This document shows, piece by piece, positions 9,464 through 31,514 of a stretch of DNA of 64,000 nt. Positions within the stretch are counted from its first letter, which is position 1. The number at the start of each line of letters is the position of its first letter. The DNA is taken from NCBI RefSeq assembly GCF_014385095.1, contig NZ_JACRTC010000004.1, positions 62,001 through 126,000 of the forward strand, given 5' to 3'. The stretch comes from Zongyangia hominis. GTDB taxonomy: Bacteria > Bacillota > Clostridia > Oscillospirales > Ruminococcaceae. The notes beneath the pieces were generated by a model that worked only from the letters and a program-made list of their open reading frames with translations, ran no database searches and was not told the origin of the DNA. A program made the translations under genes and the position numbers.

Positions 9464-10678
9464 ATGAAAAAAACAATACGCGGAAGCTGGAAAAGGATGG
9501 TTGGTCTTGGGCTTTGCCTGGGGCTGCTTTTCAGTTTGGCCGGGTGTGCCGGTGAGCCAGGGCGGAACATCGTCATAGAGAAAGATCCTTTAGCGGCGTC
9601 ACAAGCAAAGCTGACCTTTTTCGGCTATAAATACGAAGCGCTCAACGTCACGGCGATCGAAGATTCCCTGCATAGATTTATGGATTCCCACCCGGAGATT
9701 ACCATCTCTTATGATGGAATCAAGAGTCCGGAGTATTTTGACGTATTGGAAAAGCGGATGGCAACAGGCAATGGAAATGACATTTTTATGGTGGATCATG
9801 CCCGTATGCTGGAATTGGGGCGGCGCGGAAAACTGGCGGATTTGTCCGATTTGTCCACGCTGGAAAACTTCAGCGATCTCGCCAGAAGCCAGATGGGCGC
9901 CGACGGGACCATCGATTATGTCCCCACGTCCATTTCCGCATTCGGGTTGTACTGCAATTTGGATTTGCTGAAGAAACATGGGCAAAAAGTGCCGGAAAAT
10001 CTGTCGGAACTGGAAGCAGTGTGCGACTATTTTGTAGGCAAGGGAATTACCCCCATCGTAGCGAACAATGATATATCGCTGAAAACGGTGGCCATCGCCA
10101 AGTCGCTGCTTCCCATCTATCAGCACGAGGATCCCTCCGCCCTGCTGGCACAGTTCAATAACGGAACCGCCGACCTGGCGGAAACGCTCCGGCCCGGTTT
10201 TGCGTTGGTGGAACAGATGCTGGCACGGGGTTGGATTGATTCGGAAGAGGCTCTGGCCACGGCGAAAACGAAAGACGACTTGACCCTGTTTGCCGGTGGG
10301 GAACGGCCCTTTATGCTGACCGGCGCATGGGCGGTGCCACGGGTCAGAGACCTGGCGCCAAAGCTTGATTTCACGGTTCAGCCTTATCCCATCTTGGAGG
10401 ATGGCAGCGTACTGGTCATCAATGTGGATACCCGCGTCAGCATTAACGCGGACAGTGCGCATGTGAAGGAGGCTAAGCAATTCCTGGAGTATATTACCCA
10501 GCCCGACGCTATGTGGAAATTTGTCAACAGCCAAAGCTCGTTTAGTCCGCTGAAAGAAAACCGTCTGGCGGAAGATAAGGCCGTCCAGCCTATCGGTCCC
10601 TATCTGAGCAACGGCAGAAGCGTGCTGGGCTCGGATGACAATTTGCAAATTCCCATTTATCTATTAAACCCTCTGTAA
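9464..10678 (+). CDS. Extracellular solute-binding lipoprotein (sugar type), 3' end replaced by mobile element
   Basis: A 404-residue family 1 extracellular solute-binding protein. The lipoprotein signal ends in lipobox LAGC (Cys about residue 28). Typical features are LTFFGYKYEALN, NGNDIFMVDHARM, an ISAFGLYCNLDLLKK region and KEAKQFLEYITQPDAMWKF near the end. Codons up to Q-I-P (10652) are native; the last seven residues IYLLNPL and the stop come from the inserted element. The missing native tail of 41 residues is at 19511-19637. No ABC permease or ATPase lies nearby, and the original gene overlapped the histidine kinase gene by ATGA, so a sensory role feeding that kinase is likelier than transport. 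Loss of the C-terminal helices may or may not abolish folding. Confidence 0.88.
   Translation: MKKTIRGSWKRMVGLGLCLGLLFSLAGCAGEPGRNIVIEKDPLAASQAKLTFFGYKYEALNVTAIEDSLHRFMDSHPEITISYDGIKSPEYFDVLEKRMATGNGNDIFMVDHARMLELGRRGKLADLSDLSTLENFSDLARSQMGADGTIDYVPTSISAFGLYCNLDLLKKHGQKVPENLSELEAVCDYFVGKGITPIVANNDISLKTVAIAKSLLPIYQHEDPSALLAQFNNGTADLAETLRPGFALVEQMLARGWIDSEEALATAKTKDDLTLFAGGERPFMLTGAWAVPRVRDLAPKLDFTVQPYPILEDGSVLVINVDTRVSINADSAHVKEAKQFLEYITQPDAMWKFVNSQSSFSPLKENRLAEDKAVQPIGPYLSNGRSVLGSDDNLQIPIYLLNPL
10646..10653. repeat. attL core, 8-bp direct repeat CAAATTCC
   Basis: CAAATTCC at the host/element boundary is repeated at 19503-19510. Joining host sequence before this repeat to that after the other restores one uninterrupted frame, L-Q-I-P-V-W-D-M. 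Confidence 0.85.
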
Positions 10679-10690
10679 ACCCTGCATTTT

Positions 10691-10754
10691 CAAGGCTTTT
10701 CGCCAGTGTAATTCTCAAACCTTATGTATTTTCCCTTGTTTTTGCCCTTATGAG
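10691..10754. repeat. Left-end integrase arm-type repeats
   Basis: CAAGGCTTTT (10691-10700) and CCCTTATGAG (10745-10754) both recur in the same orientation at the right end of the element (19436-19445 and 19349-19358). Sub-terminal repeats like these are usual for integrase arm binding; the function here is inferred. Confidence 0.55.
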
Positions 10755-10771
10755 CCGAAACAAGGGAAAAT
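10728..10771 (-). terminator. Terminator of the integrase gene
   Basis: ATTTTCCCTTGTTT and AAACAAGGGAAAAT form a 14-bp perfect stem directly downstream of the integrase stop, with T residues after it on the minus strand. Confidence 0.75.
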
Positions 10772-10775
10772 TTTG

Positions 10776-12074
10776 TTATTCGCCGCCGACTACCTTATCC
10801 AGCAGCCTTGCGGAAGTACGCTTCGCTTCCCTTGTAGCGTGAGCGTAGATGTTCATTGTGGTACTGACATCAGCGTGTCCGAGAAGCTCCTGCACATCCT
10901 TTGGAGCAGCCCCATTTGAGAGCAGATTACTTGTGAAGGTGTGGCGTAGCTGGTGGAAATGGAAGTCCTCCAATCCCTCAACCTTTTTCCTTGCCGCCCT
11001 GCACATAATCCCTACCGTACTCGGCGATTCAAACGCCCCGTCCGGTCTGAGGCAGACAAAGGATATTTCCTTGTACCCCTCCGGGACTTCTTCCGTTCTC
11101 GGCAGACTGTAAACCTCGTAATAAGTACGGTCTTTTTCTTTGACTTCACGGTAGTAGTTGAGGCTGTAAAGTTCTCCGTAGCGGAAGCGGTTTTTATGCT
11201 GCTCGGCTTTGGCTGCCTTAAGGATTGCCGCCAGCGTGTCGCAGAAGTCAACAGTGCGGACTTTCTTACGCTTCGTTGCTCCTATCTCTGTCTTGTGCCT
11301 TGCTCCGTTGTAGCGCATACTGCGGCGTACCGTGAGGTACTGTTCATTAAGGTTGATGTCCTGCCAAGTAAGAGCGCATACCTCGCCAATGCGAAGTCCC
11401 GTGTAGTAGGCGATTTGAATGGGCAGCAGAGCGGGATTATCTTTCTTTTTCAAGAAATCTTCCAGTTGCAAATATTGCTCATGGCTGATTGTGGGGGCGG
11501 AAGCCACATCACCGTCCTCGTCCGAGAACAGTTCGTATTCTTCCTTTTTGCCCCTCCACACTACATACTGCATCGGGTTAAAGGAAATCAGCCTTTTCGG
11601 GAACACCGCAAAACGGAACGCCCCTTGCAGGACTGCCGAGAACAATCGCAGATACCCTTTACTGAGTGCCTTTGCCTGTGTGCCGTCGGGATTTGTACCG
11701 CCGAAGCTGAGAAGGTCGATATATGCCTGTAAATGGTCAGCCGTTACACTTTTCAGTTTTCGGTTGCCGATAGGGTGCTGCTTGATACGGTTGACTGTAC
11801 CCTGATACGCCATAACCGTACCGTTACTCAGATTACCGGGCTTCAGTTCTTCCTCTACCCATTGATCTAACAGCATTCCCACCGTAACATTCTCCGTTTT
11901 AGCAACAAATTTCTTTTCCTCGTAGTCCTCCATTGCCTTTCGCAGCAGTGCTTCTGTTTCCGCCTTGCTTTCTGTTCCGGGGAACTCCTTCTGCACACGG
12001 TTTCCGCTTTCATCTTCGATATAAAAGCGGTAGTACCACTTTTTGCCTTTCTTTCTTACAGAACCTTTTGCCAT
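10776..12074 (-). CDS. int: Tyrosine site-specific integrase
   Basis: A 432-residue phage/ICE-type integrase. Residues 1-55 form an AP2-like arm-binding domain ([20 protein letters not shown]), about 60-180 the core-binding SAM-like domain, and 195-425 the catalytic domain. Catalytic residues visible: R228 in TGLRIGE, H374 and R377 in HQLRH, H400 in LLGHAD and nucleophile Y410 in MNIYAH. All are intact, so the enzyme is probably active. It would recombine the CAAATTCC cores at 10646 and 19503. It lies at one end of the element pointing outward, as is typical. Confidence 0.95.
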
Positions 12075-12183
12075 AGATATAATTTCTCCTTTCTATCCGT
12101 GGCAATCGGGACTGTGACATATGGTGTGCGTAAAGTAAATAGCGTCACTTGCCGGTTGTTATTTCAGCCGGCATTTTCATTTG

Positions 12184-12846
12184 TCAAGGTGCCACGGAAA
12201 TTTTCTTTTCGGCCAGCCTTTCCTCGGCTGCCGACACTATCCCGAAGAGTTCGCCCATGGATACCTTTGTGCGACCCTCATCGTAGATATGTAAAATCCC
12301 GTCAAGAAATCGTTTCATATCTTCGATCGGTGCTTCCATTTCGTTACGATAGACCTTTTCTGTGATTGCGCCCGATTCAATGGCATATCGCATCAGCGAT
12401 TCTTTCAGCCCCTCGTCAGCAGCTACACGGTCAACCTCTGCCATAGCATCAGCAAAGTGATAACAGAGTACCGAGTACAGGTCTATCATCTTTCCGAGAA
12501 ATGTGGTCAGAAGCTGCTGGTGCGGCTCTCCCTGAACAACGCTCACGCTGTCAAGGTATTTTGCAATGTGACTTTCAATGTCTCTCTGGCAGAGCGTTTT
12601 GGTGTCATATTCCTTTTCTTCGGAAAGACCTGTCAGCCATTCGGGAGTGGTCAGAAGTGCTTCTGCCAGTCCGTTGATAATCATGGTTCGCTTCGGATCA
12701 ACACCGTCTGCTTCATATCGCTGGATGGTGGATTTGTTCACTCCTATGCGTTTTCCGAGTTCCGGCATTGTGAGATTCAGTTCCAATCTTCGTTCCTTCA
12801 CTCGTCCACCGACCTGTTTTGCGGTGAATGTAATTTCTTCTTTCAA
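12184..12846 (-). CDS. Cro/CI-type repressor of the mobile element
   Basis: A 220-residue regulator starting at TTG 12846, which lies 8 bases after AAGGAGGTG; the longer frame from 12912 lacks such a site. Residues about 12-65 form the helix-turn-helix: RVKERRLELNLTMPELGKR then GVNKSTIQRYEADGVDP. The remaining part is helical and of unknown function. Divergent from the excisionase gene across a promoter region with repeated GTTGCAAAATAGG-like sites, so it probably represses xis and its own gene. Small maturation domains such as LexA-type peptidase are not seen. Confidence 0.85.
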   Translation of the reverse strand: MKEEITFTAKQVGGRVKERRLELNLTMPELGKRIGVNKSTIQRYEADGVDPKRTMIINGLAEALLTTPEWLTGLSEEKEYDTKTLCQRDIESHIAKYLDSVSVVQGEPHQQLLTTFLGKMIDLYSVLCYHFADAMAEVDRVAADEGLKESLMRYAIESGAITEKVYRNEMEAPIEDMKRFLDGILHIYDEGRTKVSMGELFGIVSAAEERLAEKKISVAP

Positions 12847-12894
12847 GGTTTTCACCTCCTTGCGAATATAATCATAACACAAAGGTACGCAATT

Positions 12895-13006
12895 TGCAAC
12901 CCTATTTTGCATATTTTCTCAAAAATATTTAATAACAGGTTGCAAAATAGGTTGACACAAGATAGCAAAATAAGTATAATTATGATTGTAGAGTTGCAAA
13001 ACAAGT
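12895..13006 (+). promoter_or_regulatory. xis promoter with repeated repressor-like operators
   Basis: TTGACA (12952-12957) and TATAAT (12975-12980) have exact 17-base spacing. Around them are related sites: GCAACCCTATTTTGCAT (about 12895-12911, inverted), GTTGCAAAATAGG (12939-12951), TAGCAAAATAAG (about 12963) and GTTGCAAAACAAG (about 12993). One site abuts the -35 box, one fills the spacer and one lies just after the -10 box, which would suit repression by the divergent Cro/CI-type protein. Confidence 0.7.
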
Positions 13007-13028
13007 ATTTTACAAAGGAGGAATGAAT

Positions 13029-13244
13029 ATGAGCACAACCAAAATGGGACTTACCATCGAAGAAGCTGCCGAATGTACGGGCATCGGGAGAAATACCATG
13101 CGTAAGTTGGTAGACTGGGGCAAGCTGCCTGTTCTGAAGGTCGGACGAAAAACCATCATCCGCAGGGATACACTGGAACGTTTTATGACCGTCAATCAGG
13201 GCAGAAACCTACTGTGTCAGGATGATGTCCGAAAGGTAGAGTAA
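13029..13244 (+). CDS. xis: Excisionase (Xis), helix-turn-helix family
   Basis: A 71-residue protein. KMGLTIEEAAECTGIGRNT followed by MRKLVDWGKLPVLKVGRK is the MerR-like winged helix of the excisionase family, with a KTIIRRDTLERFM tail. It would bend DNA at the element ends and direct the integrase to excision. ATG 13029 is preferred to ATG 13023 because AAAGGAGG ends only one base before the latter. Expressed from the strong promoter at 12952-12980. Confidence 0.88.
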   Translation: MSTTKMGLTIEEAAECTGIGRNTMRKLVDWGKLPVLKVGRKTIIRRDTLERFMTVNQGRNLLCQDDVRKVE

Positions 13245-13269
13245 ACCGTTCGGGGAGCCCTCGGCGTTT

Positions 13270-13460
13270 GAGAGCGAAATACACCCCTCGCACAAATCTG
13301 ACGATTTGTACTCCGGGTATTTCGCCCTTGCAGGGAGCCTGTATCACAGCATCGGCGCACTCCCTCTGCTATGATACAGAGAAAATTGCATCGCAATTTT
13401 CTGTTGCTGTCCCTCTGTCAAATGCCATCGGAACAGCCGCAACCGACAAGTCGGTTGCAA
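13270..13460 (+). other. Hairpin-rich region before the relaxase gene, probable oriT
   Basis: Four nested or successive inverted repeats fall within 190 bp: GCGAAATAC...GTATTTCGC enclosing ACAAATC/GATTTGT (13292-13309), TGTATCA/TGATACA (13340-13378), GAAAATTGC/GCAATTTTC (13381-13401) and GCAACCGAC/GTCGGTTGC (13439-13458). Dense inverted repeats just upstream of a mobilisation relaxase are typical of transfer origins. The nick site cannot be read by eye. Confidence 0.6.
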
Positions 13461-13494
13461 AATGAGAACGCCCCAATACGGGAGAAAGGACACT

Positions 13495-14904
13495 ATGGCA
13501 AGACACAGCTTCATTCAGATGTCGAAGCTGCCAAATGTCAAAGGACGCATTTCGTATATCACAAGCAAGGCAAAACAGGAGAACCTGTATGCCACCTACC
13601 GCACCGCAGACAATACCTTTTGGAACAATCTTGCAAGGGAAAGTCAGCAGGAATTTAAGCGAAGCGGCACCACAGGAAAGTGTATCGAAGCAAGGGAGCT
13701 TATCATCGCCCTGCCGGAACTCTACACTAAATTTGACCCCGACAAGGTGCTGAAGGACTTCACAGACCTGTTTCGCAAGCGGTACGGCGTGGAATGTGTG
13801 TCGGCACTCCATCACAACAAACGAAAGACCAACTACCATATCCACCTGATTTTCAGCGAACGAAAGCTGCTCCCGGAGCCTGATGTAAAGGTAGCCACCC
13901 GAAGCGTTTTCTTTGATGAAGCAGGGCAAAGGGTACGCACCAAGAAAGAAATCACCGGGGAGGACGGACAGATACGAAAAGGCTGTACAGTCATCAAAAA
14001 AGGTGAGACTTACGAAAGCCACCTCTTTACCACCAAAGACGAGCGTTTCAAAAGCGAACCCTTTCTTGATGAAGTCAAGCAGGTTTACACCGCCCATATC
14101 AACCGCCATATCGCAGACCCCGAACAGCAGCTCAAGGTCTTTGACAAAAACGGTGTGTATCTGCCTACCAAAAAAATCGGCAAGAACAATCCGCGAGAGG
14201 AAGAAATCAAAGCCGACAATGCCGCAAGGCAGGAGTGGAATCGAACAGCGGATATGGCACTTATCACAGGCATTTCGGAAGAAACGATATTGGAGGTCAA
14301 GCAGACGCAGATCCACGAAAAAGTCAGCCAGTCTATCCGTGACAGCGGTTGGCTTCCCAACCTGTTCCGCAGTATCGTGAGTAAGGCAAAAGATTTTCTG
14401 CAAAATCTTATCCGAGAAAAGGATATGCCGCCAAAGCCTACACTGGATATAGATATGGCGGAGTTCCGTCATATGCGCAACCTGATGATAAAACTGCAGG
14501 ATAAGGCAAAAGAAATCAAACACTTGCAGGACAAGGTGCTACCCGACCTGAAACAGCAGCTTGCCGAAACAAAGGGTATTTTCAAGGGCAAGGAGCGTAA
14601 AGCGTTGGAAGCGCAGATACAGCAGACCGAAAGGGAAATCGCTGATAAGCTGGACAAAATCCCTGACACACTGAAAGCAGACGGTTATCCCGATGTACAG
14701 GCGTTTATGGATACCTTCCGAAAAATGGAGGGTGTTGTAGAGCAGTACAACCGTGACCTTGCCAGATGGGAACAGCAGGTTCAGGAGAAAGAAAAGACCC
14801 AAAGACCGCCTGAAAAAGAAAGCGTCCGAGACAGGCTCAGACAGTTACAGGCAGAGGGCAAGCAGCAAAGAACACGAAAGAAGTCCCAAGACAGAGAAAG
14901 ATAG
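13495..14904 (+). CDS. MobA/MobL-family relaxase
   Basis: Start at ATG 13495 (MARHSFIQMSK), preceded by GGAGAAAGGA; 469 residues. The N-terminal relaxase domain contains ARELIIALP and the histidine triad segment NYHIHLIFSERK, used to bind the metal for nicking at oriT. A long helical, charged C-terminal half (about residues 300-469, for example KERKALEAQIQQTEREIADK) is predicted coiled coil. It would nick the adjacent oriT-like region and pilot single-stranded DNA to a conjugation machine supplied by another element. No coupling protein or secretion gene is present. Confidence 0.88.
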   Translation: MARHSFIQMSKLPNVKGRISYITSKAKQENLYATYRTADNTFWNNLARESQQEFKRSGTTGKCIEARELIIALPELYTKFDPDKVLKDFTDLFRKRYGVECVSALHHNKRKTNYHIHLIFSERKLLPEPDVKVATRSVFFDEAGQRVRTKKEITGEDGQIRKGCTVIKKGETYESHLFTTKDERFKSEPFLDEVKQVYTAHINRHIADPEQQLKVFDKNGVYLPTKKIGKNNPREEEIKADNAARQEWNRTADMALITGISEETILEVKQTQIHEKVSQSIRDSGWLPNLFRSIVSKAKDFLQNLIREKDMPPKPTLDIDMAEFRHMRNLMIKLQDKAKEIKHLQDKVLPDLKQQLAETKGIFKGKERKALEAQIQQTEREIADKLDKIPDTLKADGYPDVQAFMDTFRKMEGVVEQYNRDLARWEQQVQEKEKTQRPPEKESVRDRLRQLQAEGKQQRTRKKSQDRER

Positions 14905-15001
14905 TTTTGACACCGAAAACGACACCGCAGGGCAGAACCTCTGCCTTGCGGGATTACATATATCCTTGAAATACTTATCCAATTTCACTATAAAGTAAGA
15001 A

Positions 15002-15036
15002 AGCCCTCCTGTCAGTTTGTATCTGACAGGAGGGAC
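15002..15036. terminator. Hairpin between relaxase and surface-protein genes
   Basis: CCCTCCTGTCAG and CTGACAGGAGGG form a perfect 12-bp stem with a 7-base loop between two convergent genes. The T runs are weak on both sides. Confidence 0.65.
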
Positions 15037-15069
15037 TGTTGTAAGTGTGATAAGCACACTTATATGATT

Positions 15070-17934
15070 TTATTTCGCTCTTTTCTTCTTACCGTAAACC
15101 ATAGTTCCGATTACGCCTGCTCCGCTCATAAAGAGAAGTGCAATCCACAATGCCATATGGCTGTTATCTCCGGTCTGAGGAGACTTTGTATCGTTATCTA
15201 CTACTGCTTTCGCATTCACGGTAAATGTTGTGGTAGCTGTACCGCTTTCGGATACAATGCCGATGGTATGCTCGCCGGCTGAAAGTGTTGCTACATAATC
15301 AGCCTTTAAGGTTACAACCGTACTGCCTTCCTTGACGGTATAATTTTTCGCATCAAGGTTTTTTCCGTCAAGCTCAACTCGGATAAAATCGCTGAACGCC
15401 GCATTGGATTTGAAAATAAGCTCTTTCTTTTCTCCTGCTGTTATGCTTTGTCCTTTACCCTCGATAATTTCAGGCGAGAGCTTTGAGATTATTGTGTCCT
15501 CAAGCTTGATTTCCTTTGTGCCGTTTTCATCGGCGAAGTATTTGCCGCAATCCTGACAATGCCAATACTCTGTGTTTCCTGTTTCTGTAACAGTTGCATC
15601 CTTTGCAGGAATTTTTTCAAGATTATGATTTGCACTGTCAATCTCGCCGTATTCTGCCTTGCAGGTGTCGCAGACTGCTTTGGCTACACAGGTAGCTTCA
15701 CCGCCTGCGCAGTTGCCGTCTTCATAGCCGCTGCAGCCATCAACGGTGCAGTAGCGTGTATGTGTGTCATCACTGTTTGACTGCCATTCGCCGTAGGTGT
15801 GCTTGGCATTTGCCGCAGTAATTACATATCCGCATTCGCAGACAACTGCAGTTGTGCAGTCGCCGTCATCCGTGCAGGAGTGAGGTGTTTCGGTTTCGGC
15901 GACGGTACAGCCATCATTTTGACAAATGTGCCAGTGGTCTGTGCCGTTTTTCTGCCATTCGCCGCTGAAATCGTGAGATTTCGCCGCAACCACAACCGTA
16001 TCGGGATGATAAATGCAGTAAACAGGTGTTGAACAGTTGCCGTCATCATTACCCGCTGTGTGTCCGTTATTGACTGTTACACAAACCTGTGCGGTGTTGC
16101 CTGCATTGTCTGTAACAACAACAGTTACCTTACCAACCCCTTTTGCAAGAGTATATTTGCCGTCAGTGGCTGTTAATTCAACATCGTTTGCCTTTACGCT
16201 TGCAATACCGTCGTTATCGCAGACTTCAAACTCTACCGCATCGCAGTAGATATTGCCGTTTTCAAGTCCTGTGATTACAGGCTTTTGAATATCCTTCCAC
16301 TGGGCAACAAGTGTAACACTTGTAACAGTATCATTAGCCGCAAGATCGGAATACATAGTGTTTGCGTTTACGGTCATATCCCCGCACTTCCAGCCGGTAA
16401 AATCAAAGCCGTCCTTTGTCGGATTCGTAATACCGTCAAGTACTTTATCCGTCCATTTAACACCTGTTTTATCACTTATACCGCTACCGCCATTGGTATC
16501 AAATGCAACGGTGAAACTATTTTTCTCGGTATAATGCGCCGTATAGGCTCTGTCACCTGTACTGCCTTTCGCAATGATAACGGTCATATTGTTTTCGCCG
16601 GTTAAGCCTGTTCCGCTCCAGCCGGTAAAGGTGTAGCCGGTCTTTACAGGATTGTTGAGCGTAATCGCATCACTTTCCGCATTATATGTTGCCGGGTTAG
16701 TTGCCGTACCGCCGTCTAAATCATAGGAAATATTATAAGTTATCGCATCTTTGTATTTTGCCTTCAAGGTAATGGTTTGTGTAACGGGTAGGTTGAAATC
16801 GTACTTTGTATCGCCGTTGTACCAACCGTCAAAGGCTTGGTATCCGTTCTTTGTGGGATCGGCAGGCTGAAGCGCCGTTGCCTTATCTGTATTGACAAAC
16901 CACTGGGTAGGTACGGAGCCTCTGCCGCCGTTTGAGTCAAAGCTGACGGTGTGATATGTGCCGCTGACCGTGCCTGAACTATCCTGAATACCGCCGTAGT
17001 AAACACCGCTGCTGATGGTTCCCTTGTTTGTAACCTTTTCATAAAACCTGGTATAGCTATTGGAGCTTGTGGTTTGAATCGTGCTGTTTGGTTGTAAATA
17101 AACCATGTCTTTCACAATACCGCCGTTTGCGAGAATATTCGAATTGCTGGCAAAAATAGCAGCGGATTCTGATACATATTTTGATGTACAATTCTCAATA
17201 ATGCCGCCGGTCATGGTAAACGTAGAAAGACCACCGGATCCTGAAGCTACAATATACAAACCGCCACCGCCAAATGATGATTTGCAATTCTTAATTTCAC
17301 CATCCCCTATGGTAAAGGTACCACTGGAAACATATATGCCGCCACCGCCTCCAGATTTTGCACTGCAATTCTCAATGGTGCCGCCCTCCATGGCAAAGGT
17401 GCTTTTGTCGACATACACACCGCCTCCATATGTGGCACTGCAATTCTCAATGGTGCCATCCTCCATGGTAAAGGAGCCAGAATGGAAGACATACACACCG
17501 CCTCCACCTGTTGCACTGCAATTCTCAATGGTGCCGCCGGTCATGGTCATGCTGCAGCCACCGCCGACATATACTCCACCTCCGTTTTGTGTTGCATTGC
17601 CGCCGGTGATCACGCCGCCGGCAGGTAAAGTGCTGTCTGTGTGAGTTGCGGTGTTGTTGCTGTCTATCATCGTCAGATTTGCTTGGCTTCCGATGATAAT
17701 CACAGTGCCGCTGCCGGTCATTTTTATCACATGACCGTTAAGGTCAAGGGTAACTGTTCTATCCACGTCCAGAGTTGAGTCGATGGTATAATCCTTGTCC
17801 AGCGTTACCGTGCCGCCGCCGCTGAGCAGGCTCTGCAGCTCAGTGGCATCGTCGTTGGCCGCAAAGGCCGTCACCGGGCAGAGCATCAGCACCATGCAAA
17901 GGGTAAGCACGATACTTAAAATTCGTTTTTTCAT
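15070..17934 (-). CDS. Sortase-type cell-wall surface protein, mobile-element cargo
   Basis: A 954-residue secreted protein. The signal peptide MKKRILSIVLTLCMVLMLCP ends at AFAA. Residues about 90-270 are glycine-rich repeats such as GGTIENCSATGGGGVYV, the signature of a right-handed beta helix. Next come two or three InlB/Listeria-Bacteroides type repeats (VSFDSNGGRGS, ISYDLDGGTAT, VAFDTNGGSGI), an Ig-like segment (VTDNAGNTAQVCVTV), then a Cys/His-rich region with CxxxGC and CxxC pairs (about 640-810). The C-terminus has SPQTGD, a hydrophobic helix and KKKRAK, a sorting signal of the SPxTG kind known in Clostridia. No sortase is encoded nearby, so the host enzyme would be used. Probable adhesin; ligand unknown. 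Confidence 0.88.
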   Translation of the reverse strand: MKKRILSIVLTLCMVLMLCPVTAFAANDDATELQSLLSGGGTVTLDKDYTIDSTLDVDRTVTLDLNGHVIKMTGSGTVIIIGSQANLTMIDSNNTATHTDSTLPAGGVITGGNATQNGGGVYVGGGCSMTMTGGTIENCSATGGGGVYVFHSGSFTMEDGTIENCSATYGGGVYVDKSTFAMEGGTIENCSAKSGGGGGIYVSSGTFTIGDGEIKNCKSSFGGGGLYIVASGSGGLSTFTMTGGIIENCTSKYVSESAAIFASNSNILANGGIVKDMVYLQPNSTIQTTSSNSYTRFYEKVTNKGTISSGVYYGGIQDSSGTVSGTYHTVSFDSNGGRGSVPTQWFVNTDKATALQPADPTKNGYQAFDGWYNGDTKYDFNLPVTQTITLKAKYKDAITYNISYDLDGGTATNPATYNAESDAITLNNPVKTGYTFTGWSGTGLTGENNMTVIIAKGSTGDRAYTAHYTEKNSFTVAFDTNGGSGISDKTGVKWTDKVLDGITNPTKDGFDFTGWKCGDMTVNANTMYSDLAANDTVTSVTLVAQWKDIQKPVITGLENGNIYCDAVEFEVCDNDGIASVKANDVELTATDGKYTLAKGVGKVTVVVTDNAGNTAQVCVTVNNGHTAGNDDGNCSTPVYCIYHPDTVVVAAKSHDFSGEWQKNGTDHWHICQNDGCTVAETETPHSCTDDGDCTTAVVCECGYVITAANAKHTYGEWQSNSDDTHTRYCTVDGCSGYEDGNCAGGEATCVAKAVCDTCKAEYGEIDSANHNLEKIPAKDATVTETGNTEYWHCQDCGKYFADENGTKEIKLEDTIISKLSPEIIEGKGQSITAGEKKELIFKSNAAFSDFIRVELDGKNLDAKNYTVKEGSTVVTLKADYVATLSAGEHTIGIVSESGTATTTFTVNAKAVVDNDTKSPQTGDNSHMALWIALLFMSGAGVIGTMVYGKKKRAK

Positions 17935-17964
17935 TGAATCTTCCTCCTAAGAGAATATTTTTAA

Positions 17965-18576: not shown

Positions 18577-18643
18577 TATATTACCTCCTTCCTTGTAACA
18601 TAGTGAATGATCGTTAATATTATACTATATTTGCTTTGATTTT

Positions 18644-19445: not shown

Positions 19446-19502
19446 GGAGGATTTTAATGATAACCTATAACCTCTGTTAAGAGGTCATAATTTGTGGAAA
19501 TT

Positions 19503-23762: not shown

Positions 23763-25259
23763 ATGGAACAACAAAATCAAAACAACGAGACTCCTTTGCG
23801 GGAGGAAAAACGTAAAAAAAAGCGCGTCGTTGTGCTGCTGCTCCTGCTGGCGCTGTTCTCGTCGGTCATCGTAGGCTTTTTGATCGGACGGAATACCGAT
23901 CCCTATCGCGGGCAGATTATCGACACCATCGTCATCGGCCCGGATCACAACCGGGCGCTGCATGTGGCCGGACAGGTTCTCTACACCGACGGGACGCCAT
24001 ATGCAGACAAGCGGGTGGAGCTGCGCAGCGAGCCCCGCATTACGACGACGGACGGACGCGGCCGGTTTTTCTACGAATCGACGGAGCCTGGGCCGCATAC
24101 CCTTTCCGTTCTGGACGATAACGGAAAGGCACTGGCGAAATGCGAATTTACCATCTTCCGTAACTCCGACGGCCAGCCGATTAACATCCAAAAGCAGGCC
24201 GACGGAAAATACGCGGTGGAGCTTTCCGTCAACGTGCGTTTTGTGGAACTGGCGGTGGAGCTGGACGCAGGTGGCGAGGCTCTGAAGCTGCTGCCGGAGA
24301 AAACGGTGGCGCTGGAGGACGACGGAACCCTCACCGCGGGAGAAAAGAAAATGAACGTAGAGGACGGCGCCGTGGCGCTCCCCTCCGGCACGGTTGTGCT
24401 TCCCGACAAGACGGTGGTGGTGCTGGGAAGCCTGATCCTCCCGGACAACACCGTAACCCCCATCCCGAACGACGGTTATACCGGCGGGAACGGCGAAAAG
24501 GTTAAAGCCGACGCAACAGTGACGCTTCCGGACGGGACGGTAATAGCCCCGGGTGAAGTGAAGAAGCCGGACGGCAGTACCGTAAATCCGGAGGAACCCT
24601 ACCAGATCCCTACGGACAAAAAGCCGGAGAACGCCGATTCTTCCCGTCCTTCCGAGCCTTCTTCCAAGCCTTCGGACACCTCCCGCACGCCCTCCTCCAA
24701 GCCGACGAATCCATCGGAACCCGGCAGCAGCTCCGGCGGGGATATCCCGGTCATCACGCCGCCGGCGTCCTCCACCTCCACTTCAAGCCCGTCCGAACCG
24801 GAAGATCCCGGCACCCTCGGCGTGGAAGGCGAAAACAAGGGCGGCTGGATGCTTTGGGAAAGCCAGAGCGACATCGATTTGTTCTATAACCGCGTGGGCG
24901 GCCCGGCGGACAAAATCCAGCCCGGTTCCGCCGGGTTCTACCGCTTCCGGCTGAAGAACACCCGGTCGAAGGAGCTGCAGATCACCATCACCCTTTCGGA
25001 AGACCGGCTGCACATTCCCCTGAAGCTCACGCTGACGCCTCTGGACGCGCATGGAAACAAAACCGCGGGGCGCGTCACCGGCTCGATTGTCAATGGGACG
25101 CTGGTTCTAGAAGGCTCCATCGGAGCGAAGACGGAAACCACCTACCAGCTGGACTGGGAGTGGCCGTTGACTGGCAATGACAAAGCGGATACGGCGGCAG
25201 GCCTTACCGGCGGCGACTACATCGTCAGCCTCCAAATCCTCGCCCAAGAGAGAGCGTAA
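23763..25259 (+). CDS. Membrane-anchored stalk protein with C-terminal TasA-like domain
   Basis: Start ATG 23763 (AAAGGAG about 10 bases upstream); 498 residues. Cytoplasmic basic head, one helix (about 22-42, VVVLLLLLALFSSVIVGFLI) without a leader-type cleavage site, then a carboxypeptidase-regulatory-like beta domain (residues 60-115, LHVAGQVLYTDGTPYADKRV). Next, strand repeats of the type VTLPDGTVIAPGEVKKPDGS, a Ser/Pro/Thr-rich linker (about 290-355), and a C-terminal domain (about 370-498) with KIQPGSAGFYRFRLKNTRSK and LDWEWPL resembling the neighbouring subunits. It may anchor the fibre to the membrane, as TapA does in Bacillus, but is built differently. Confidence 0.75.
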   Translation: MEQQNQNNETPLREEKRKKKRVVVLLLLLALFSSVIVGFLIGRNTDPYRGQIIDTIVIGPDHNRALHVAGQVLYTDGTPYADKRVELRSEPRITTTDGRGRFFYESTEPGPHTLSVLDDNGKALAKCEFTIFRNSDGQPINIQKQADGKYAVELSVNVRFVELAVELDAGGEALKLLPEKTVALEDDGTLTAGEKKMNVEDGAVALPSGTVVLPDKTVVVLGSLILPDNTVTPIPNDGYTGGNGEKVKADATVTLPDGTVIAPGEVKKPDGSTVNPEEPYQIPTDKKPENADSSRPSEPSSKPSDTSRTPSSKPTNPSEPGSSSGGDIPVITPPASSTSTSSPSEPEDPGTLGVEGENKGGWMLWESQSDIDLFYNRVGGPADKIQPGSAGFYRFRLKNTRSKELQITITLSEDRLHIPLKLTLTPLDAHGNKTAGRVTGSIVNGTLVLEGSIGAKTETTYQLDWEWPLTGNDKADTAAGLTGGDYIVSLQILAQERA

Positions 25260-25273: not shown

Positions 25274-25378
25274 TTGGAAAGCTCATTCGCAAAGCTTTAC
25301 ACGGCGGGACTGGCGCTGCTATTCCTGCCGGACTTAATTCGTAACTTCATATCCCACAGAAAGGGGTGTGCCGATTGA
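25274..25378 (+). CDS. Possible 34-residue membrane peptide
   Basis: A frame from TTG 25274 reads LESSFAKLYTAGLALLFLPD then LIRNFISHRKGCAD, a single hydrophobic helix followed by basic residues. Its TGA (25376-25378) overlaps the likely TTG start of subunit 2 (TTGA), a coupling pattern. No good ribosome site is visible and I do not recognise it. It fills the otherwise empty 115-bp gap after the stalk gene. Confidence 0.35.
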   Translation: MESSFAKLYTAGLALLFLPDLIRNFISHRKGCAD

Positions 25379-25884
25379 AAAAACAACTGACCGCCGGACG
25401 CATCGCCGGTTATCTCTTCTGCCTGTCGCTCATCTGCATGGCGGTATGCGGCGTATCCTACGCCCGGTATGCCTCTTCCGTGAACGGTAGCGCCATAGCG
25501 ACGGTGGCGGCGGTGGCCGGCGAGATGAGAAATACGGCGATTGACGTCAGCGGCATGCAGCCGGGCGATACCAAAACCGTGGAGTTTGCGGTGGCGAACT
25601 ATTCCGGAGGGAAGACCAGCGAAGTGGCGCAGGAGTACACCGTCACGGTGAAAACCTCCGGGAACCTGCCTTTTACCTTTACTTTAACGCCGAAGGCCGG
25701 GACGGAGAATCCAGCTGGAAGCCTAAAAAATACAAGCGGCGTGTGGAAATCCACAGCCGGGTTTCTGCCGGCGGCGGAGCAAACGACGCATTCCTATACC
25801 CTGACGATCACCTGGCCGGCCGGGCAAACGGCGCCGGATTACATGGATGAAATCGATACGGTTACGCTCATCGTGGACGTCTAG
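25375..25884 (+). CDS. TasA/camelysin-like subunit 2
   Basis: A 169-residue secreted protein, start probably TTG 25375 with AAAGGGG 8 bases upstream (a GTG at 25366 is too close). The leader contains AGYLFCLSLICMAVCGVSYA followed by RYASSVNGSAIATVAAVAGE. The body has MQPGDTKTVEFAVANYSGGK and EYTVTVKTSGNLPFTFTL, ending in an HSYTLTITWPAG strand. The layout equals subunit 1, with the same ARY after the hydrophobic stretch. Probably a minor fibre component. Confidence 0.75.
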   Translation: MKKQLTAGRIAGYLFCLSLICMAVCGVSYARYASSVNGSAIATVAAVAGEMRNTAIDVSGMQPGDTKTVEFAVANYSGGKTSEVAQEYTVTVKTSGNLPFTFTLTPKAGTENPAGSLKNTSGVWKSTAGFLPAAEQTTHSYTLTITWPAGQTAPDYMDEIDTVTLIVDV

Positions 25885-25931: not shown

Positions 25932-26725
25932 ATGAAATTCCATCGGCCACAACATGAAAAACCAAACAAGCAGAAAAAGCGGCGGTGCCTGCTGCTGGCC
26001 GGCGTCGTTCTGACGGCCGCCGCCCTGGTCACCGGGCTGACGATGGCGAAATATGTGCAGCAATGGAAAAGCGAGCCCGCGCTGGTCGGCACCAAGGCAT
26101 TCTATTTCACCAGCGACCTGCTCAAAGACGCGAGCGAGAATGCTTCCTATGAGCTATACAGCTGGGGCGATGGTATTAAAATCCAGCTTCAAAACTTTGA
26201 GGATGAAAAACGGATTTCCGAAACCGATATTACATACGAGGTCTCTTATACTCTAACCGGGGGAGCCAAGAGTGAAGTTACAAAAGGGACAATCGCCTCA
26301 GGTGCGGGAACCGCCGTGAGTGATACGATCACCGTCAAACCGGAACCAGGGGCAAAAACGGTGACAGTGACCGCAAAAGCGACATCTCCTTATGAAAAGG
26401 CACTGTCGGCACTTTTGTGCTGAAGGATACGGAATCGCCGAAATATCAGGTGGTGGATTCCGTGGGTAGTCCCACCGCCGAACTGATTATCAAGGGCGGC
26501 AACACGACGCAGGAATTTACACTGAAATGGGACGCCAGCCTGCTGTCCCCCGACCGGACCAATCCGTTATTCAAAGAAGCCGTCTTTAGCAGCAGTACCG
26601 TATCCATAAAGATAACCGCCAGCGGGAGCTGCAGTTTCCTTCTCTTTAAAAAAGATCCTGTGCACAATTACAGCATAAAAGAACAGGAAATCATAAACAG
26701 CACGATTTCACTAAACGGTAATTGA
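25932..26725 (+). pseudogene. TasA/camelysin-like subunit 3, broken by a frameshift
   Basis: The first frame (25932-26423) begins MKFHRPQHEKPNKQKKRRCL with a leader ending VTGLTMAKYVQQWKSEPAL and runs to a stop after KALSALLC. The second frame (to 26725) continues with FVLKDTESPKYQVVDSVGSP and ends STISLNGN. Adding one A to the run at 26395-26398 gives SPYEKGTVGTFVLKDTESP in one frame, about 264 residues. The long basic head before the hydrophobic segment differs from the other two subunits. The break may be a real inactivation, a switch, or a sequencing error. No classical slippery heptamer is present. Confidence 0.75.
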
Positions 26726-26756: not shown

Positions 26757-29700
26757 ATGCATGATAAAATGATGAAATTATCGGAAGCCCCAAAGCGCCT
26801 GCTGGCGGTTCTGCTGGCTGTCTGCCTGCTGCTCTGCGCTGTCAATCTTCAAAGCCTTACGGCGTTCGCGGCGGCGGATATGGGCAGCGAGACGCTGACC
26901 GCCACGGTTGTCAAAACCGACGGCAGCGACTCCGTTTCCCTGGTATCTGAAGGAGACGCAGTTGCTTCAGAGTGGGCCTATGACGAAACCCGGAGGCTCA
27001 CCATAACGGCGGATTTCACCGGCGTGGACGGCGAGAGAAAAATCAAAATCGAGCTGCCGGTGGGGATGTGCTTCAATAAGGGCGGATATCCCACCGAAGC
27101 GAATTCCCAGATTCAGACGTTTACTTATGTTAAATCCAAGCTGCCGACCAATTACAGTCCGGCCGATAAGGATCCTGCGCTGGGTGGAACGCTGACATAC
27201 ACCATCAAGCCGGCTGTGGACAAAGTCTCTCTCGATATTTTAATTTCCTACGATGAACAGCTTTGGAATAAAGAAAACGGCGGTTCGGTGACAGGATCGC
27301 CCGATGATAAGACTTCCAATTATGCAGTTCCTGTTGCGGTAACGAAGACAGCCGGCAATTTTACCGAAACAAAAATCCTTTCTAAAGTCACGACGTATAC
27401 CGGTACGGATAAGACCAAAACCTATTATGTTTCCTATAGCAACGATCCGGATATCATGTATGACAAACCGCTTGATACAGCCGTCTCAATGGGCCGGCAA
27501 TATATCTATAACGGACGCAGCGGCAGCCAAATCAACAGCACCCCGAACCTGTACTGGAAAAAAGTGACTCTGATCCAGGAAGCGCCGTATAAGACTTTGC
27601 ATGATGGAACAAAGGTTCATGCTGAATATGCAGGCATTGCCGCGGTATCTCCCACAGATTATACCAACGCCGAGACGAAAGACCACACAACTACGCTCAC
27701 CTGGACGGACAATGGTAATTTCGGCTATGGCATGCCGAGCATCAATGCAAAATATAGTTTTCCGTCGGGCAATTTCCAGGCGGGTGATAAGATTACCTAC
27801 CCGCAGCCGCAGATTCGCGTACAGGGAATCTATGGAGGAGAACGCGATTACTATACTCCGAATACTGGGGCAGCCGTTACATTTAATCTCAGCAACGAGG
27901 GACAACTTGTCATCGGCCGGGGAGCCGGGGGAAAATCGTTTCCGGCCAGCGAAACGAACACAGACGTCGCCTACTATCTCGATAACTTTCTGTTATCCAA
28001 TCAGGGAGCCGCGGCGTCCGGGCCGCAGAAATTCACCTATACCTTTGCCGGTAAAAGCGGCGTAGGCGTCACGTCCATGCGGCTCATTATGCCCAAACAA
28101 GCCGACTGCAAGCTAAATGAGAACCAAAAGGTGGATGTCACTTGCACGGTGACGGATAAGGACGGCATAGAAGTACCTAACGATACCGTAAAGATTGAAG
28201 TAACCCCCAGCCTCAATGACACCGGCCGGGATGTGATTGTATCCCGGAACGCGGAAATGGTAGAAAAAAACTACTACTTCCATACCATCTCCTATGAAGT
28301 GGGGACGCTCCAGCCGGGAACGCTTTATTACGCCAGTTCCTCCCCCTTCATGAGCGGCGGCGCGATTTACGGAAAGCTGATCGAGGGCAGCGCAAACAAA
28401 CCGGAAGCCGGCAAGGAATGCCTGAGCGCCTCGCTTGTAATTGAATCTGTCGAGACAGGCAAAACCACGGCAAAATATGAACAGATGTCGATCAAGGTCC
28501 AGGATGAACCGCGCACAACTACCATTGGACTTCGGAATACCGATCCGCTCAAAGGGAATGAAAGCACCACCATACCAGCCGGGGGCACGCTGAAGGTCAC
28601 GGCTCAGCTCGAAGCCAGCGATTACCCGTATCATAGCACCACCTTTATCTCGCATCCCGTTTTTTATCTGCGGCTGCCTAAAGAGCTTTCCTTGGTGAAA
28701 AACTCTCTGAGCACCGACCGCGTGAATGCTCTTCCCGTCGAGCAAACTTCTGTTGCGGAAATCGTAGACGGAAAAGAAACAGGCTATACGCTTACCGCCA
28801 TCAACTTTGGAAATACCGAAGTCCCGATTGGCTACTATGGCGAAAATTTAAATGCTGTAAATGGCTTCCAATCTCTGACCCTGACGTTCACCCTGCAAGC
28901 CTCCAATACCATCTCACAGACCACCCAGTACGACTTGCGGGATTTGGTATGTGCGGCTGATGAGGAAGTAGGCCTGAGTACAATGAACAGCGGCTGGAAT
29001 CCTTGTAACTGGACGCACAATCCAAGTAAAGAAGATCATTTCAGCGCAGGGACGTACCGCGCAACCTATAAGCACAACGCGGACACGAATGCCACCTTTA
29101 CCGTGCAGGCCGCCGCCCCGATGGTGGAGTTTCATGCGGCGGTAAAAGACCATAGCGGGACGACGGACGCCGATTATAGCTCGGAGATGATCTTCATCGA
29201 CAATTCGGGCAGTATAGACTACCGCATTTCTTTCCAAAACAATCAGGGCGGCACGGTGGACGGCGACAAATTCTATTATCTCATCCAGCTTCCCAAAAAA
29301 GGCGAAGCGATGTCCGGGCATATGACGGGCAATACAGAGGCTCCTGCATTCGACCTTTCCCTCACCGGCCCGGTGACGCTCAAAAGCGAATATGCCAATT
29401 TGTATGATGTGCGGTATAGCACGGATATTTCCACGGATCCAGCAAACACGGATTTCTACAACAACGGCAAGGCGGATTTCAGTATGGATGGCGGCTTTGC
29501 CTCATATTTCACCGAAGAGGAAATAAAAAAGAAATTTGAGGGTCATGAACTGAGTTGGGACGATGTCCGATGCATCAAACTGGTGGTGAAAGACAAGGGT
29601 GCTGAAAACAAACGAGTGATCCCCAACGGGGAGTCCTGCACCATCACCCTGGAGAATGTTAGCTGGGATGTATCCGGTGCGAAAGGAGATACCGATTTTG

Positions 29701-31514
29701 TTTGGTCGGCCTGCGGGCTGCAGCGGTACGATTTGAAAAGTGCTGCATCTGAGGGCCATACGCCCACGAATCCGGTGACCTTTCATATCCACCCCTTCAA
29801 GATAGCCTCCAGCGTAACGCTGACCGGCGTGAAAGGGACTTCCCCGGCAGGAGCCGCCAAGACGACAACCATTCTCATTCCTGCCTACATCAATTCGAGA
29901 ACGCTGAAAATAAAGTCGGTGACTATCAGCGACGGAATCCATTTAGTTTCCTCCACTGAAATGGATTCTAACAGGAACGCGGGAATTCCCTGGGGAGATC
30001 AAAACTTTACTCTGACAGCTTCGCTGAATTCAGGCGCTTCGCTAGATATCCTAAAAGAGAATACCGATGTGATTGGAACGACCACAAAAGAAGTTGTCTC
30101 TACGCTCACTATTACTCTGGACCACGCCAATCTGCTATCCACGAAATCCAAAGCCGGCACGGTGACGGTGGTTATCGGTGAAGATGGCACCGATGGCGTG
30201 GAGATAACCGAAACAATTACCATCCGTACCATCGGCACTGAAATGGACGAAAATTATCCTTCCAGCGTCTTGTCCCAGGGCAAAAACTTTTCCGATATTA
30301 GGACAGGAAACGATCAGGTGAAAATCACCTCCGACAGCGCCGTGAGCGTACAGTTCAATTTGCAGAGCTACCTGTCCGCAAATTACGGAAAACCGTATAT
30401 CACAGGAGCCTTCCCAGCCGGCGCCACGCTGATCCTTGCGGATATCTCCAACGGCAAACAGCCGAAGTATTATTACTATTCGTGTTCGGAGGCAAAGACT
30501 GACAGCTCGCAAATCCCCTTGTCGTCATTCGTAAGTATGAATGACGGAATATCTCCGTTTATCAGTGAGCGTCTGCCTGTTGACGCTAAGCTGCTTTTCG
30601 TGGTGGACTATGCGCAGGCCACGGTGACGATATCAGGCAATGAGCTTCCGCAAACGCTAAAGCTTGTATTTCCAGGCGCGAAAGACGGGGCGCAAACCGA
30701 GCGCAGTGCCGCAGCCGCATGGGTACTTACACCCAAAAGGGAGTTCACGATCGCTGTGGATACAAGCGAAAGCGGTATGAGCATGGCAAGCAAAGGAACG
30801 GCTGCGCTTTCCGGCTCTCTCAACAGCAAGCAGCTTGTAGGAAACGATACCTGCCATGCCTCCGACTATCTCACACTGTCTCTTACCCTCTATGCGGAGG
30901 ACGGATCAACCCCGGCAAATTTCCCGGCGGGCGCCACTATAACGGCCAACCAGGTGAAGACGGGAACGGCCGAGAACAAAGCGCTTCTCACCCTGGGAAA
31001 AGCAGGAGCCAATACCGTTTTATTTAACATCCTTCTGGAAACCGCGGGATGGGGACTTTCGCCGGGGAAATATAAGCTACAAGCAGAGCTGTATTTTTCC
31101 CGTGCCGAGGGCTATGTTTCGGCCGTTTCTCAGAAGCCAGAAGCAAGTATGGAGATTACATTGACAGTCACGGATGATCCCTCCTACGGTCTGAAGGTCG
31201 AGCAGACGGATAAGGTTGGCCGGCTGGTGGATTCCGGGGCCATATTAACGTTTAAGCTGGATTACGCGGTCCCGGCAGGAAGCCCCATCACTTATAGCGC
31301 CGCACTGTATGAGAAAACAAACGGCAATTACAGCAAAACAGCCACAGCATGGACAACACCGCCGGTGTTTAACGATGATGGGAAAGAATCCTGTATGGTT
31401 TCATTGCAGGTCCCATCTACAGTGAAAAAAGGTCCTACCTACCGTATCATGTTCCGGATGGAGTGCGACGGCAAGGCGATCGAGGTGCCGTATAACATCA
31501 TTATCCGGGAATAG
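26757..31514 (+). CDS. Giant secreted protein (1585 residues) of the fibre locus
   Basis: AAAGGAG lies 9 bases before ATG 26757. The N-terminus has a standard type I signal (RLLAVLLAVCLLLCAVNLQS, then LTAFAAAD) rather than an ARY leader. The rest is beta-rich and Thr/Ser/Lys-rich, with many segments of about 100-150 residues that look like Ig-type sandwiches (for example RRLTITADFTGVDGERKIKI, PQKFTYTFAGKSGVG, GTLKVTAQLEASDYPY, KAGTVTVVIGEDGTDGVEI). The C-terminus VPYNIIIRE has no SPxTG, LysM or SLH anchor. It is last in the operon and may be the adhesive or scaffold protein carried by the fibre. Family not recognised. Confidence 0.8.
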   Translation: MHDKMMKLSEAPKRLLAVLLAVCLLLCAVNLQSLTAFAAADMGSETLTATVVKTDGSDSVSLVSEGDAVASEWAYDETRRLTITADFTGVDGERKIKIELPVGMCFNKGGYPTEANSQIQTFTYVKSKLPTNYSPADKDPALGGTLTYTIKPAVDKVSLDILISYDEQLWNKENGGSVTGSPDDKTSNYAVPVAVTKTAGNFTETKILSKVTTYTGTDKTKTYYVSYSNDPDIMYDKPLDTAVSMGRQYIYNGRSGSQINSTPNLYWKKVTLIQEAPYKTLHDGTKVHAEYAGIAAVSPTDYTNAETKDHTTTLTWTDNGNFGYGMPSINAKYSFPSGNFQAGDKITYPQPQIRVQGIYGGERDYYTPNTGAAVTFNLSNEGQLVIGRGAGGKSFPASETNTDVAYYLDNFLLSNQGAAASGPQKFTYTFAGKSGVGVTSMRLIMPKQADCKLNENQKVDVTCTVTDKDGIEVPNDTVKIEVTPSLNDTGRDVIVSRNAEMVEKNYYFHTISYEVGTLQPGTLYYASSSPFMSGGAIYGKLIEGSANKPEAGKECLSASLVIESVETGKTTAKYEQMSIKVQDEPRTTTIGLRNTDPLKGNESTTIPAGGTLKVTAQLEASDYPYHSTTFISHPVFYLRLPKELSLVKNSLSTDRVNALPVEQTSVAEIVDGKETGYTLTAINFGNTEVPIGYYGENLNAVNGFQSLTLTFTLQASNTISQTTQYDLRDLVCAADEEVGLSTMNSGWNPCNWTHNPSKEDHFSAGTYRATYKHNADTNATFTVQAAAPMVEFHAAVKDHSGTTDADYSSEMIFIDNSGSIDYRISFQNNQGGTVDGDKFYYLIQLPKKGEAMSGHMTGNTEAPAFDLSLTGPVTLKSEYANLYDVRYSTDISTDPANTDFYNNGKADFSMDGGFASYFTEEEIKKKFEGHELSWDDVRCIKLVVKDKGAENKRVIPNGESCTITLENVSWDVSGAKGDTDFVWSACGLQRYDLKSAASEGHTPTNPVTFHIHPFKIASSVTLTGVKGTSPAGAAKTTTILIPAYINSRTLKIKSVTISDGIHLVSSTEMDSNRNAGIPWGDQNFTLTASLNSGASLDILKENTDVIGTTTKEVVSTLTITLDHANLLSTKSKAGTVTVVIGEDGTDGVEITETITIRTIGTEMDENYPSSVLSQGKNFSDIRTGNDQVKITSDSAVSVQFNLQSYLSANYGKPYITGAFPAGATLILADISNGKQPKYYYYSCSEAKTDSSQIPLSSFVSMNDGISPFISERLPVDAKLLFVVDYAQATVTISGNELPQTLKLVFPGAKDGAQTERSAAAAWVLTPKREFTIAVDTSESGMSMASKGTAALSGSLNSKQLVGNDTCHASDYLTLSLTLYAEDGSTPANFPAGATITANQVKTGTAENKALLTLGKAGANTVLFNILLETAGWGLSPGKYKLQAELYFSRAEGYVSAVSQKPEASMEITLTVTDDPSYGLKVEQTDKVGRLVDSGAILTFKLDYAVPAGSPITYSAALYEKTNGNYSKTATAWTTPPVFNDDGKESCMVSLQVPSTVKKGPTYRIMFRMECDGKAIEVPYNIIIRE

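What the first reader, a model, noticed from the sequence alone, without database searches (positions are those of the whole stretch)
9464..31514. Sensing-and-fibre locus: binding lipoprotein, hybrid kinase, SipW peptidase, TasA-like subunits and a giant secreted protein in one series
Read on the plus strand: solute-binding lipoprotein, hybrid histidine kinase (ATGA overlap in the pre-insertion gene), SipW-type peptidase 17 bp later, subunit 1, membrane stalk protein, subunit 2, subunit 3 and a 1585-residue protein. Apart from the insertion, all genes point one way and no permease genes are present. SipW with TasA-like substrates is known from Bacillus biofilm fibres, but its direct linkage to a binding protein/kinase pair, a TasA-domain stalk protein and a giant partner is, to my knowledge, not described. 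Inference: ligand-controlled surface fibre assembly.
Basis: partly seen in the sequence, partly recalled or inferred. Interest (0 to 1): 0.85.

Follow-up and report, generated by a model that had tools for sequence, protein, structure and literature searches.

The report
Fibre-building gene cassette beside a sensor
This stretch of bacterial DNA holds a widely shared gene set that probably builds a TasA-like surface fibre; it sits next to a ligand sensor by what looks like local accident, while in some relatives the same gene set lies behind what looks like a flippable DNA on/off switch.

Summary
The gene series is real, with corrections. The binding-protein gene is cut by an 8.9-kb mobilizable element (8-bp repeat CAAATTCC at 10646 and 19503), subunit 3 is broken into two frames, and the kinase-SipW gap is 16 nt. 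It is two modules. (A) Binding protein + hybrid kinase: a pair in 8 of 8 orthologous loci fetched, with no SipW in the 7 whose downstream side is visible. (B) SipW - TasA-like subunit - membrane 'stalk' - more subunits - giant: 71 of 80 related loci keep a TasA-like gene followed by the stalk gene; 0 of 80 (58 with at least 4 kb upstream held) have this binding protein upstream. Models of subunit 1 and of the stalk's C-terminal domain match the TasA fibre and other strand-exchange fibres at middling scores. Fibre assembly is reasonably supported; ligand control of it is not, although the sister cassette (Dorea sp. D27) has other binding-protein and kinase genes upstream. Unexpectedly, 12 of 80 cassettes follow a tyrosine recombinase and a promoter-like segment between inverted sites ACATAAT-N4-ATTATGT; in the other 68 no such site was found. 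Control of the cassette appears interchangeable and, in some relatives, phase-variable.

The parts
9464..10678 (+). solute-binding lipoprotein gene, cut at its 3' end by the insertion (a stretch resembling the lost end lies at about 19503-19637)
   Evidence: PF13416 3.8e-27; C-terminus compared with relatives; relatives 65-74% identical
9352..9380 (+). possible sigma-70 promoter upstream of the binding protein (TTGCTT-N17-TATAAT)
   Evidence: reached by 14% of shuffles, so weak
10646..19510 (.). integrated mobilizable element between 8-bp repeats CAAATTCC (10646-10653, 19503-19510): integrase, HTH, MobA/MobL relaxase, 954-aa surface protein, TetR
   Evidence: its small ORFs were not scanned; the ends rest on the short repeat and on where the binding-protein reading breaks off
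19634..22183 (+). hybrid histidine kinase: weak dCache, HisKA, HATPase_c, two receiver stretches; no DNA-binding output domain in the Pfam scan
   Evidence: orthologs 55-63% over the longest piece
22200..22841 (+). SipW-type (archaeal/ER-type) signal peptidase
   Evidence: TIGR02228 above cut-off; S61, H99, D119 invariant in the 25-row alignment A1
23015..23629 (+). subunit 1: TasA-like fibre subunit with SipW-type signal (GGTLARY)
23763..25259 (+). membrane stalk: N-terminal helix, transthyretin/CarboxypepD_reg-like domain, short beta strands, low-confidence linker, C-terminal TasA-like domain (the ORF can start at 23742, which is the form modelled)
25366..25884 (+). subunit 2, SipW-type signal (GVSYARY)
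   Evidence: profile hits shared with subunit 1 and stalk
25932..26725 (+). subunit 3, broken into two frames (25932-26423 and 26417-26725)
26757..31514 (+). giant secreted protein (1585 aa), N-terminus like an ordinary Sec signal (by eye), no LPXTG seen at the C-terminus
   Evidence: weak pAdhesive_6 below cut-off; C-terminus compared

Best explanation
Two separately inherited modules abut. Module B (22200-31514) builds a surface fibre: the SipW-type peptidase cleaves subunits 1-3 at an alternate signal (about [GS][GS]T-x-A-[KR]-Y); the stalk stays in the membrane by its N-terminal helix, reaches through the wall and presents a TasA-like domain on which subunit 1 can polymerise by strand exchange; subunits 2 and 3 are minor or adaptor parts; the giant protein is secreted by the ordinary Sec route as tip or matrix partner. 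Module A (binding protein + hybrid kinase) is a free-standing ligand sensor that came to lie upstream in this lineage. The control module in front of the cassette changes between relatives: sensor genes, a divergent ~500-aa protein, LytTR-type regulators, or a recombinase with a probable invertible promoter. In this genome a mobilizable element has cut module A and subunit 3 is broken, so the copy may be partly inactive. Shown: gene order, conservation, fold similarity, breaks. Inferred: cleavage, polymerisation, anchoring, expression, who regulates whom.
Confidence: 0.66

Rival explanations
1. One reading: one ligand-controlled fibre locus; the binding protein loads the kinase, whose phosphorelay switches on SipW and the fibre genes.
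For: Same strand, 16-nt gap; sister cassette in Dorea sp. D27 has Peripla_BP_4 binding proteins, hybrid kinase, His_kinase and a response regulator upstream; in C. perfringens the BsaRS two-component system is needed for sipW operon expression.
Against: 0 of 80 cassettes (58 with at least 4 kb upstream) have a relative of this binding protein upstream; 0 of 7 readable orthologous pairs have SipW downstream; the kinase has receiver domains but no DNA-binding output domain and I saw no response regulator gene in the series; the Dorea genes belong to other families.
Confidence: 0.2
2. The window copy is a decaying remnant: insertion in the sensor, broken subunit 3, missing second peptidase; no working fibre is made by this strain. 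(Compatible with the best explanation.)
Against: SipW, subunits 1 and 2, stalk and giant are open; the second peptidase is also missing in L001, L004 and L005, which otherwise have full cassettes; the subunit 3 break could be an assembly error, which reads would settle.
Confidence: 0.35
3. The exported proteins are soluble secreted proteins or enzymes (Pfam calls camelysin a metallo-endopeptidase), not fibre subunits.
For: Weak camelysin hit for subunit 2 only; no experimental data.
Against: Fibre subunits head the structure lists for subunit 1, and CanA and TasA are the best matches to the stalk's C-terminal domain; an anchored TasA-domain stalk makes little sense for a soluble enzyme.
Confidence: 0.1

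Closest known systems
Bacillus subtilis tapA-sipW-tasA and Bacillus cereus sipW-tasA/calY/capP
   Same: SipW-type peptidase beside TasA-like exported subunits (gene order recalled); sortase-independent filaments of TasA and CalY with CapP (PMC13082335, abstract and outline).
   Different: Here a membrane-anchored TasA-domain stalk, three subunits and a giant secreted partner; most relatives have a second SipW-like peptidase; sequence relation to TasA not detectable by Pfam.
Clostridium perfringens sipW-bsaABCRSD
   Same: SipW with polymer-forming BsaA and putative secreted partners, a two-component system in the same operon, bimodal expression; strain SM101 naturally has insertion sequences in the operon (PMC7395162, passages).
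   Different: Kinase/regulator pair inside the operon instead of binding protein + hybrid kinase upstream; no stalk or giant mentioned in the passages read. Its sequences were not compared here.
Binding-protein-dependent sensor kinases (XylFII-LytS; CuaD with adjacent genes; P. aeruginosa SBP-activated kinases)
   Same: Solute-binding protein gene near a sensor kinase gene (PMC10384115 and PMC11113362, abstract openings in the search listing only; XylFII-LytS recalled).
   Different: Here a hybrid kinase with two receiver stretches; ligand unknown.
Gut invertons, group 139 with invertase group 35 (PMC11892184)
   Same: Mostly clostridial invertible segments tied to a nearby tyrosine recombinase; orientation shifts in reads reported for Clostridium sp. 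D5 and Intestinimonas (passages and section 8).
   Different: Identity with the site found here is likely but unproven: the main text holds neither half-site (0 occurrences); SipW and signal peptidase have 0 occurrences in the main text. Supplements not readable.

Membership tests
SipW/TasA-type fibre system | ER/archaeal-type signal peptidase beside its substrates | tested here: met
   TIGR02228 above cut-off; S61, H99, D119 invariant in A1; their catalytic roles are recalled
SipW/TasA-type fibre system | Substrates carry the SipW-type signal motif | tested here: met
   T27 and A29 invariant, Y31 nearly so, in 34 subunit-1 sequences; similar motif in most subunit-2 and -3 homologs; the motif itself is recalled from TasA
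SipW/TasA-type fibre system | TasA/camelysin fold of the subunits | tested here: inconclusive
SipW/TasA-type fibre system | Polymerises into fibres | not testable with these tools
   needs electron microscopy
sipW-bsaABCRSD (C. perfringens) | Two-component system that controls the operon promoter | not tested
   A kinase gene lies upstream here; control untested; no cognate DNA-binding regulator seen in the series
Binding-protein-dependent sensor kinase | Binding protein gene adjacent to kinase gene | tested here: met
   8 of 8 orthologous loci fetched keep the pair; permease-like genes noted by eye only in L185/L186
Recombinase-driven invertible promoter (relatives, not the window) | Paired inverted sites with identical crossover letters, adjacent recombinase | tested here: met
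   28 sites at <=1 mismatch, all in 14 pairs with reverse-complement N4; the 12 such loci among the 80 are the same 12 that have the recombinase upstream
Recombinase-driven invertible promoter (relatives, not the window) | Promoter inside the segment whose direction changes | tested here: inconclusive
   best promoter-like match away from SipW in 12, toward in 1 (L005), tied in 1 of 14; two orientations were not seen within one species
Recombinase-driven invertible promoter | Present in the window | tested here: not met
   no site at <=1 mismatch in the window

The most novel reading that the evidence does not exclude
A TasA-like fibre cassette with a membrane-anchored TasA-domain base is a mobile, widely shared surface device of Clostridia, Coriobacteriia and Erysipelotrichia, whose control is swapped like a plug: sensor kinase sets in some, regulators in others, and in at least 12 of 80 loci a tyrosine recombinase with an invertible promoter, so that single cells switch the fibre on or off by flipping DNA.
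Probability: 0.6. Interest if true: 0.76.

Novelty: new variant of a known kind. Interest (0 to 1): 0.58.

Why it matters
TasA fibres are known to me almost only from Bacillus (recalled). This points to a large, little-characterised family of related cassettes in anaerobes, gives a concrete anatomy (peptidase, anchored base, subunits, giant partner), and offers a directly testable switch: the orientation of a 190-364 bp segment (930 in one) can be read from existing sequence data. It also warns against reading sensor-effector logic from adjacency in one genome.

Tried and rejected
Sequence families: Pfam and NCBIfam pass no TasA/camelysin cut-off for any subunit, even listing up to E 10, apart from one sub-threshold hit. 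PDB profile searches: one chance hit (E 0.63) for subunit 1, none for subunit 2, and for the stalk mainly its carboxypeptidase-like region. Remnant of a second SipW in 25260-25365: no convincing match. IMG/VR: 11 stretches matched a pattern, none a SipW relative. Invertible site in the window: none at <=1 mismatch; my first pattern with a 6-base spacer was wrong and gave 5 sites against 5-11 in shuffles, corrected. Promoter scores taken singly are mostly unimpressive: only 4 of 14 segments beat 97% of shuffles (L043, L044, L047, L052); the argument rests on the constant place of the -10 (54-68 nt from the segment end in 13 of 14, L049 excepted) and the spacer of 17 (18 in L061). In 20 other site pairs the best match falls 50-72 nt from an end in only 11. 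The recombinase device is not specific to SipW: of 20 fetched site regions SipW lies in 2 (L145, L154); others flank surface proteins, capsule-like genes or unknown genes, named by eye. Literature: invertible + SipW 0 papers; phase variation + invertible + TasA 2 papers, by title and abstract opening not about this; solute-binding protein + hybrid histidine kinase + TasA 0 papers; the listed parts (8 of 8; 12 of 134; 12 of 116; 10 of 358) showed no such link by title and abstract opening. Supplements were not readable, and most subscription papers are not in the library.
Full report
What is there. The binding protein is a SBP_bac_8 lipoprotein; the kinase has HisKA, HATPase_c and two receiver stretches with a dCache hit below cut-off; the peptidase passes the archaeal-type signal peptidase model TIGR02228 and hits the Bacillus SipW model at 4e-33, below that model's cut-off. 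Subunits 1-3 carry the alternate signal motif GGTLARY / GVSYARY / GLTMAKY, which recurs in the homologs of subunit 1 (T27, A29 invariant). The stalk has an N-terminal helix in its model; the giant's N-terminus looks like an ordinary Sec signal (by eye) and no LPXTG was seen at its C-terminus.

What is broken. An element of about 8.9 kb with a tyrosine integrase, an HTH protein, a MobA/MobL relaxase, a 954-aa surface protein and a TetR protein lies between two copies of CAAATTCC (10646, 19503). The stretch right of it reads, in one frame, like the C-termini of six relatives' binding proteins and overlaps the kinase start as ATGA. Subunit 3 is split into two frames: its halves match positions 5-149 and 155-243 of a profile of eight relatives. 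The second SipW-like peptidase present in 69 of 80 related loci was not found here; it is also missing in L001, L004 and L005. The copy may therefore be partly inactive, unless the subunit 3 break is an assembly error.

Module B is a widespread cassette. A scan of one genome per species found 461 stretches encoding relatives of this SipW; only the best 80 were kept. In 71 of 80 a TasA-like gene and then a stalk-family gene follow on the same strand; the nine others are L003, L014, L018, L046, L049, L056, L061, L071 and L074, some of them short contigs or cut flanks. 26 of 80 have a subunit-3 relative and 16 of 80 a giant of this family. Carriers include Clostridia, Eggerthella and Gordonibacter (Actinomycetota), Holdemania and Enterococcus hulanensis. 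In a tree of 75 SipW sequences (the window and 74 of the 80 loci) the window is sister to Dorea sp. D27 (100/99) inside a 14-row clade (99/97). SecA points elsewhere: of 24 genomes tested the best match is Candidatus Soleaferrea massiliensis (77%), while Dorea gives 65% and 53% in two parts. This suggests horizontal movement of the cassette (inference).

Module A stands alone. A search with the kinase's sensor part found close orthologs (54-60%) in 4 of 297 genomes of the Soleaferrea family and 3 of 299 of the Dorea family; weaker matches (36% or less) in 1 and 13 further genomes were not followed. The eight loci fetched around the close orthologs all keep binding protein (65-74%) next to kinase (55-63% over the longest piece). 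SipW is absent in the 7 with a visible downstream side; L172 ends inside the kinase, and L185/L186 are near-copies in one genome. Conversely, a relative of the window's binding protein lies within 6 kb upstream in 0 of 80 cassettes; 58 of the 80 hold at least 4 kb there. Kinase genes lie there in L001 (Dorea), L034 and, 5.6 kb away on the other strand, L047. Dorea's upstream genes are two Peripla_BP_4 binding proteins, a PAS hybrid kinase, two His_kinase genes and a response regulator: similar in idea, other families. The C. perfringens sipW operon also contains its own two-component system (PMC7395162, passages). So sensor control of such cassettes is plausible in general, but for this pair the adjacency looks local.

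An unexpected switch in relatives. Upstream of SipW a ~280-aa tyrosine recombinase (PF00589 in the one scanned, from L044) lies on the same strand in 12 of 80 loci, the commonest upstream gene that I classified (the divergent ~500-aa protein 6, LytTR/response-regulator types 9, a phage-type integrase 4). The sequence ACATAAT-N4-ATTATGT at <=1 mismatch occurs 28 times in 1.48 Mb (111 loci plus window). All 28 form pairs in 14 loci, and the N4 letters of the two sites are reverse complements in each pair; three Markov shuffles gave none at that stringency. Twelve of these 14 loci are the 12 recombinase loci of the 80; in the other 68 no such site was found, though 22 of the 80 hold under 4 kb upstream; the remaining two (L093, L111) come. 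The segments are 190-364 bp (930 in L049). The best sigma-70-like match points away from SipW in 12, toward it in 1 (Eggerthella, L005) and is tied in 1 (L061); its -10 lies 54-68 nt from the segment end in 13 of 14. Gordonibacter (L006) has the same TTGCAA-N17-CATAAT as L005 in the opposite direction. This is what an invertible promoter caught mostly OFF would look like. I did not see two orientations within one species; the near-pairs that align (L002/L003, L043/L044/L093, L047/L052) all lie the same way round.

The switch is general. Exact sites occur in 15 of 24 genomes tested and in 27 of 297 of the Soleaferrea family; the reversed control pattern gave none in the first set and one genome in the second. 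In 20 fetched site regions the recombinase lies beside the site in 19 (not L144), and SipW lies nearby in 2. A published inverton set (group 139 with invertase group 35, 32 of 33 from Clostridia, orientation shifts seen in reads) is probably the same device (PMC11892184, passages and section 8); its main text does not mention SipW or signal peptidase, its supplements were not readable, and searches joining the two topics found nothing.

How it most likely works. Shown: gene order, conservation, signal motif, fold similarity, breaks, site pairs. Inferred: SipW cleaves the subunits; the stalk anchors and seeds; subunit 1 polymerises; the giant binds the fibre or matrix; the upstream module sets when. 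Within the 14-row clade that holds the window, four kinds of upstream module occur (the window's sensor pair, Dorea's sensor set, the ~500-aa divergent protein in 6, recombinase plus sites in 5; in L024 none was recognised), so control appears to be swapped while the cassette stays.

Noticed in passing
L002, L003, L005, L006, L012, L023, L043, L044, L047, L049, L052, L061, L093, L111: Paired inverted sites ACATAAT-N4-ATTATGT beside SipW genes, with a tyrosine recombinase found in 13 of these 14 loci (not seen in L111): putative invertible promoter of the fibre cassette.
   Followed up: yes
L142-L161: The same recombinase/site device elsewhere in the genomes, next to surface proteins, capsule-like genes (L156) and unknown genes, named by eye.
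   Followed up: partly
L051, L055, L069, L078: Another, phage-type integrase family upstream of SipW cassettes; L055 also shows a 27-bp imperfect inverted repeat.
   Followed up: no
L004, L007, L008, L010, L013, L015: Divergent ~500-aa protein with no Pfam match (only the L004 one was scanned), upstream of 6 of 80 cassettes: candidate regulator.
   Followed up: partly
window 31871-33681 and L187:2042-3746: Genes that I read by eye as L-serine dehydratase (77-81% identical) flank a SipW-containing surface locus both in the window and in G437, where that locus is of another type (1567-aa protein, SipW-like, recombinase sites): a possible insertion hot spot.
   Followed up: partly
window 10646-19510: Mobilizable element carrying a 954-aa surface protein with Listeria-Bacteroides repeats and a TetR regulator.
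   Followed up: no
L183:5090-6484 and window 5558-7051: A homolog (26%) of the window's GntR-like protein (named by eye) lies directly upstream of the binding protein in L183; in the window that gene lies a few kb upstream.
   Followed up: no
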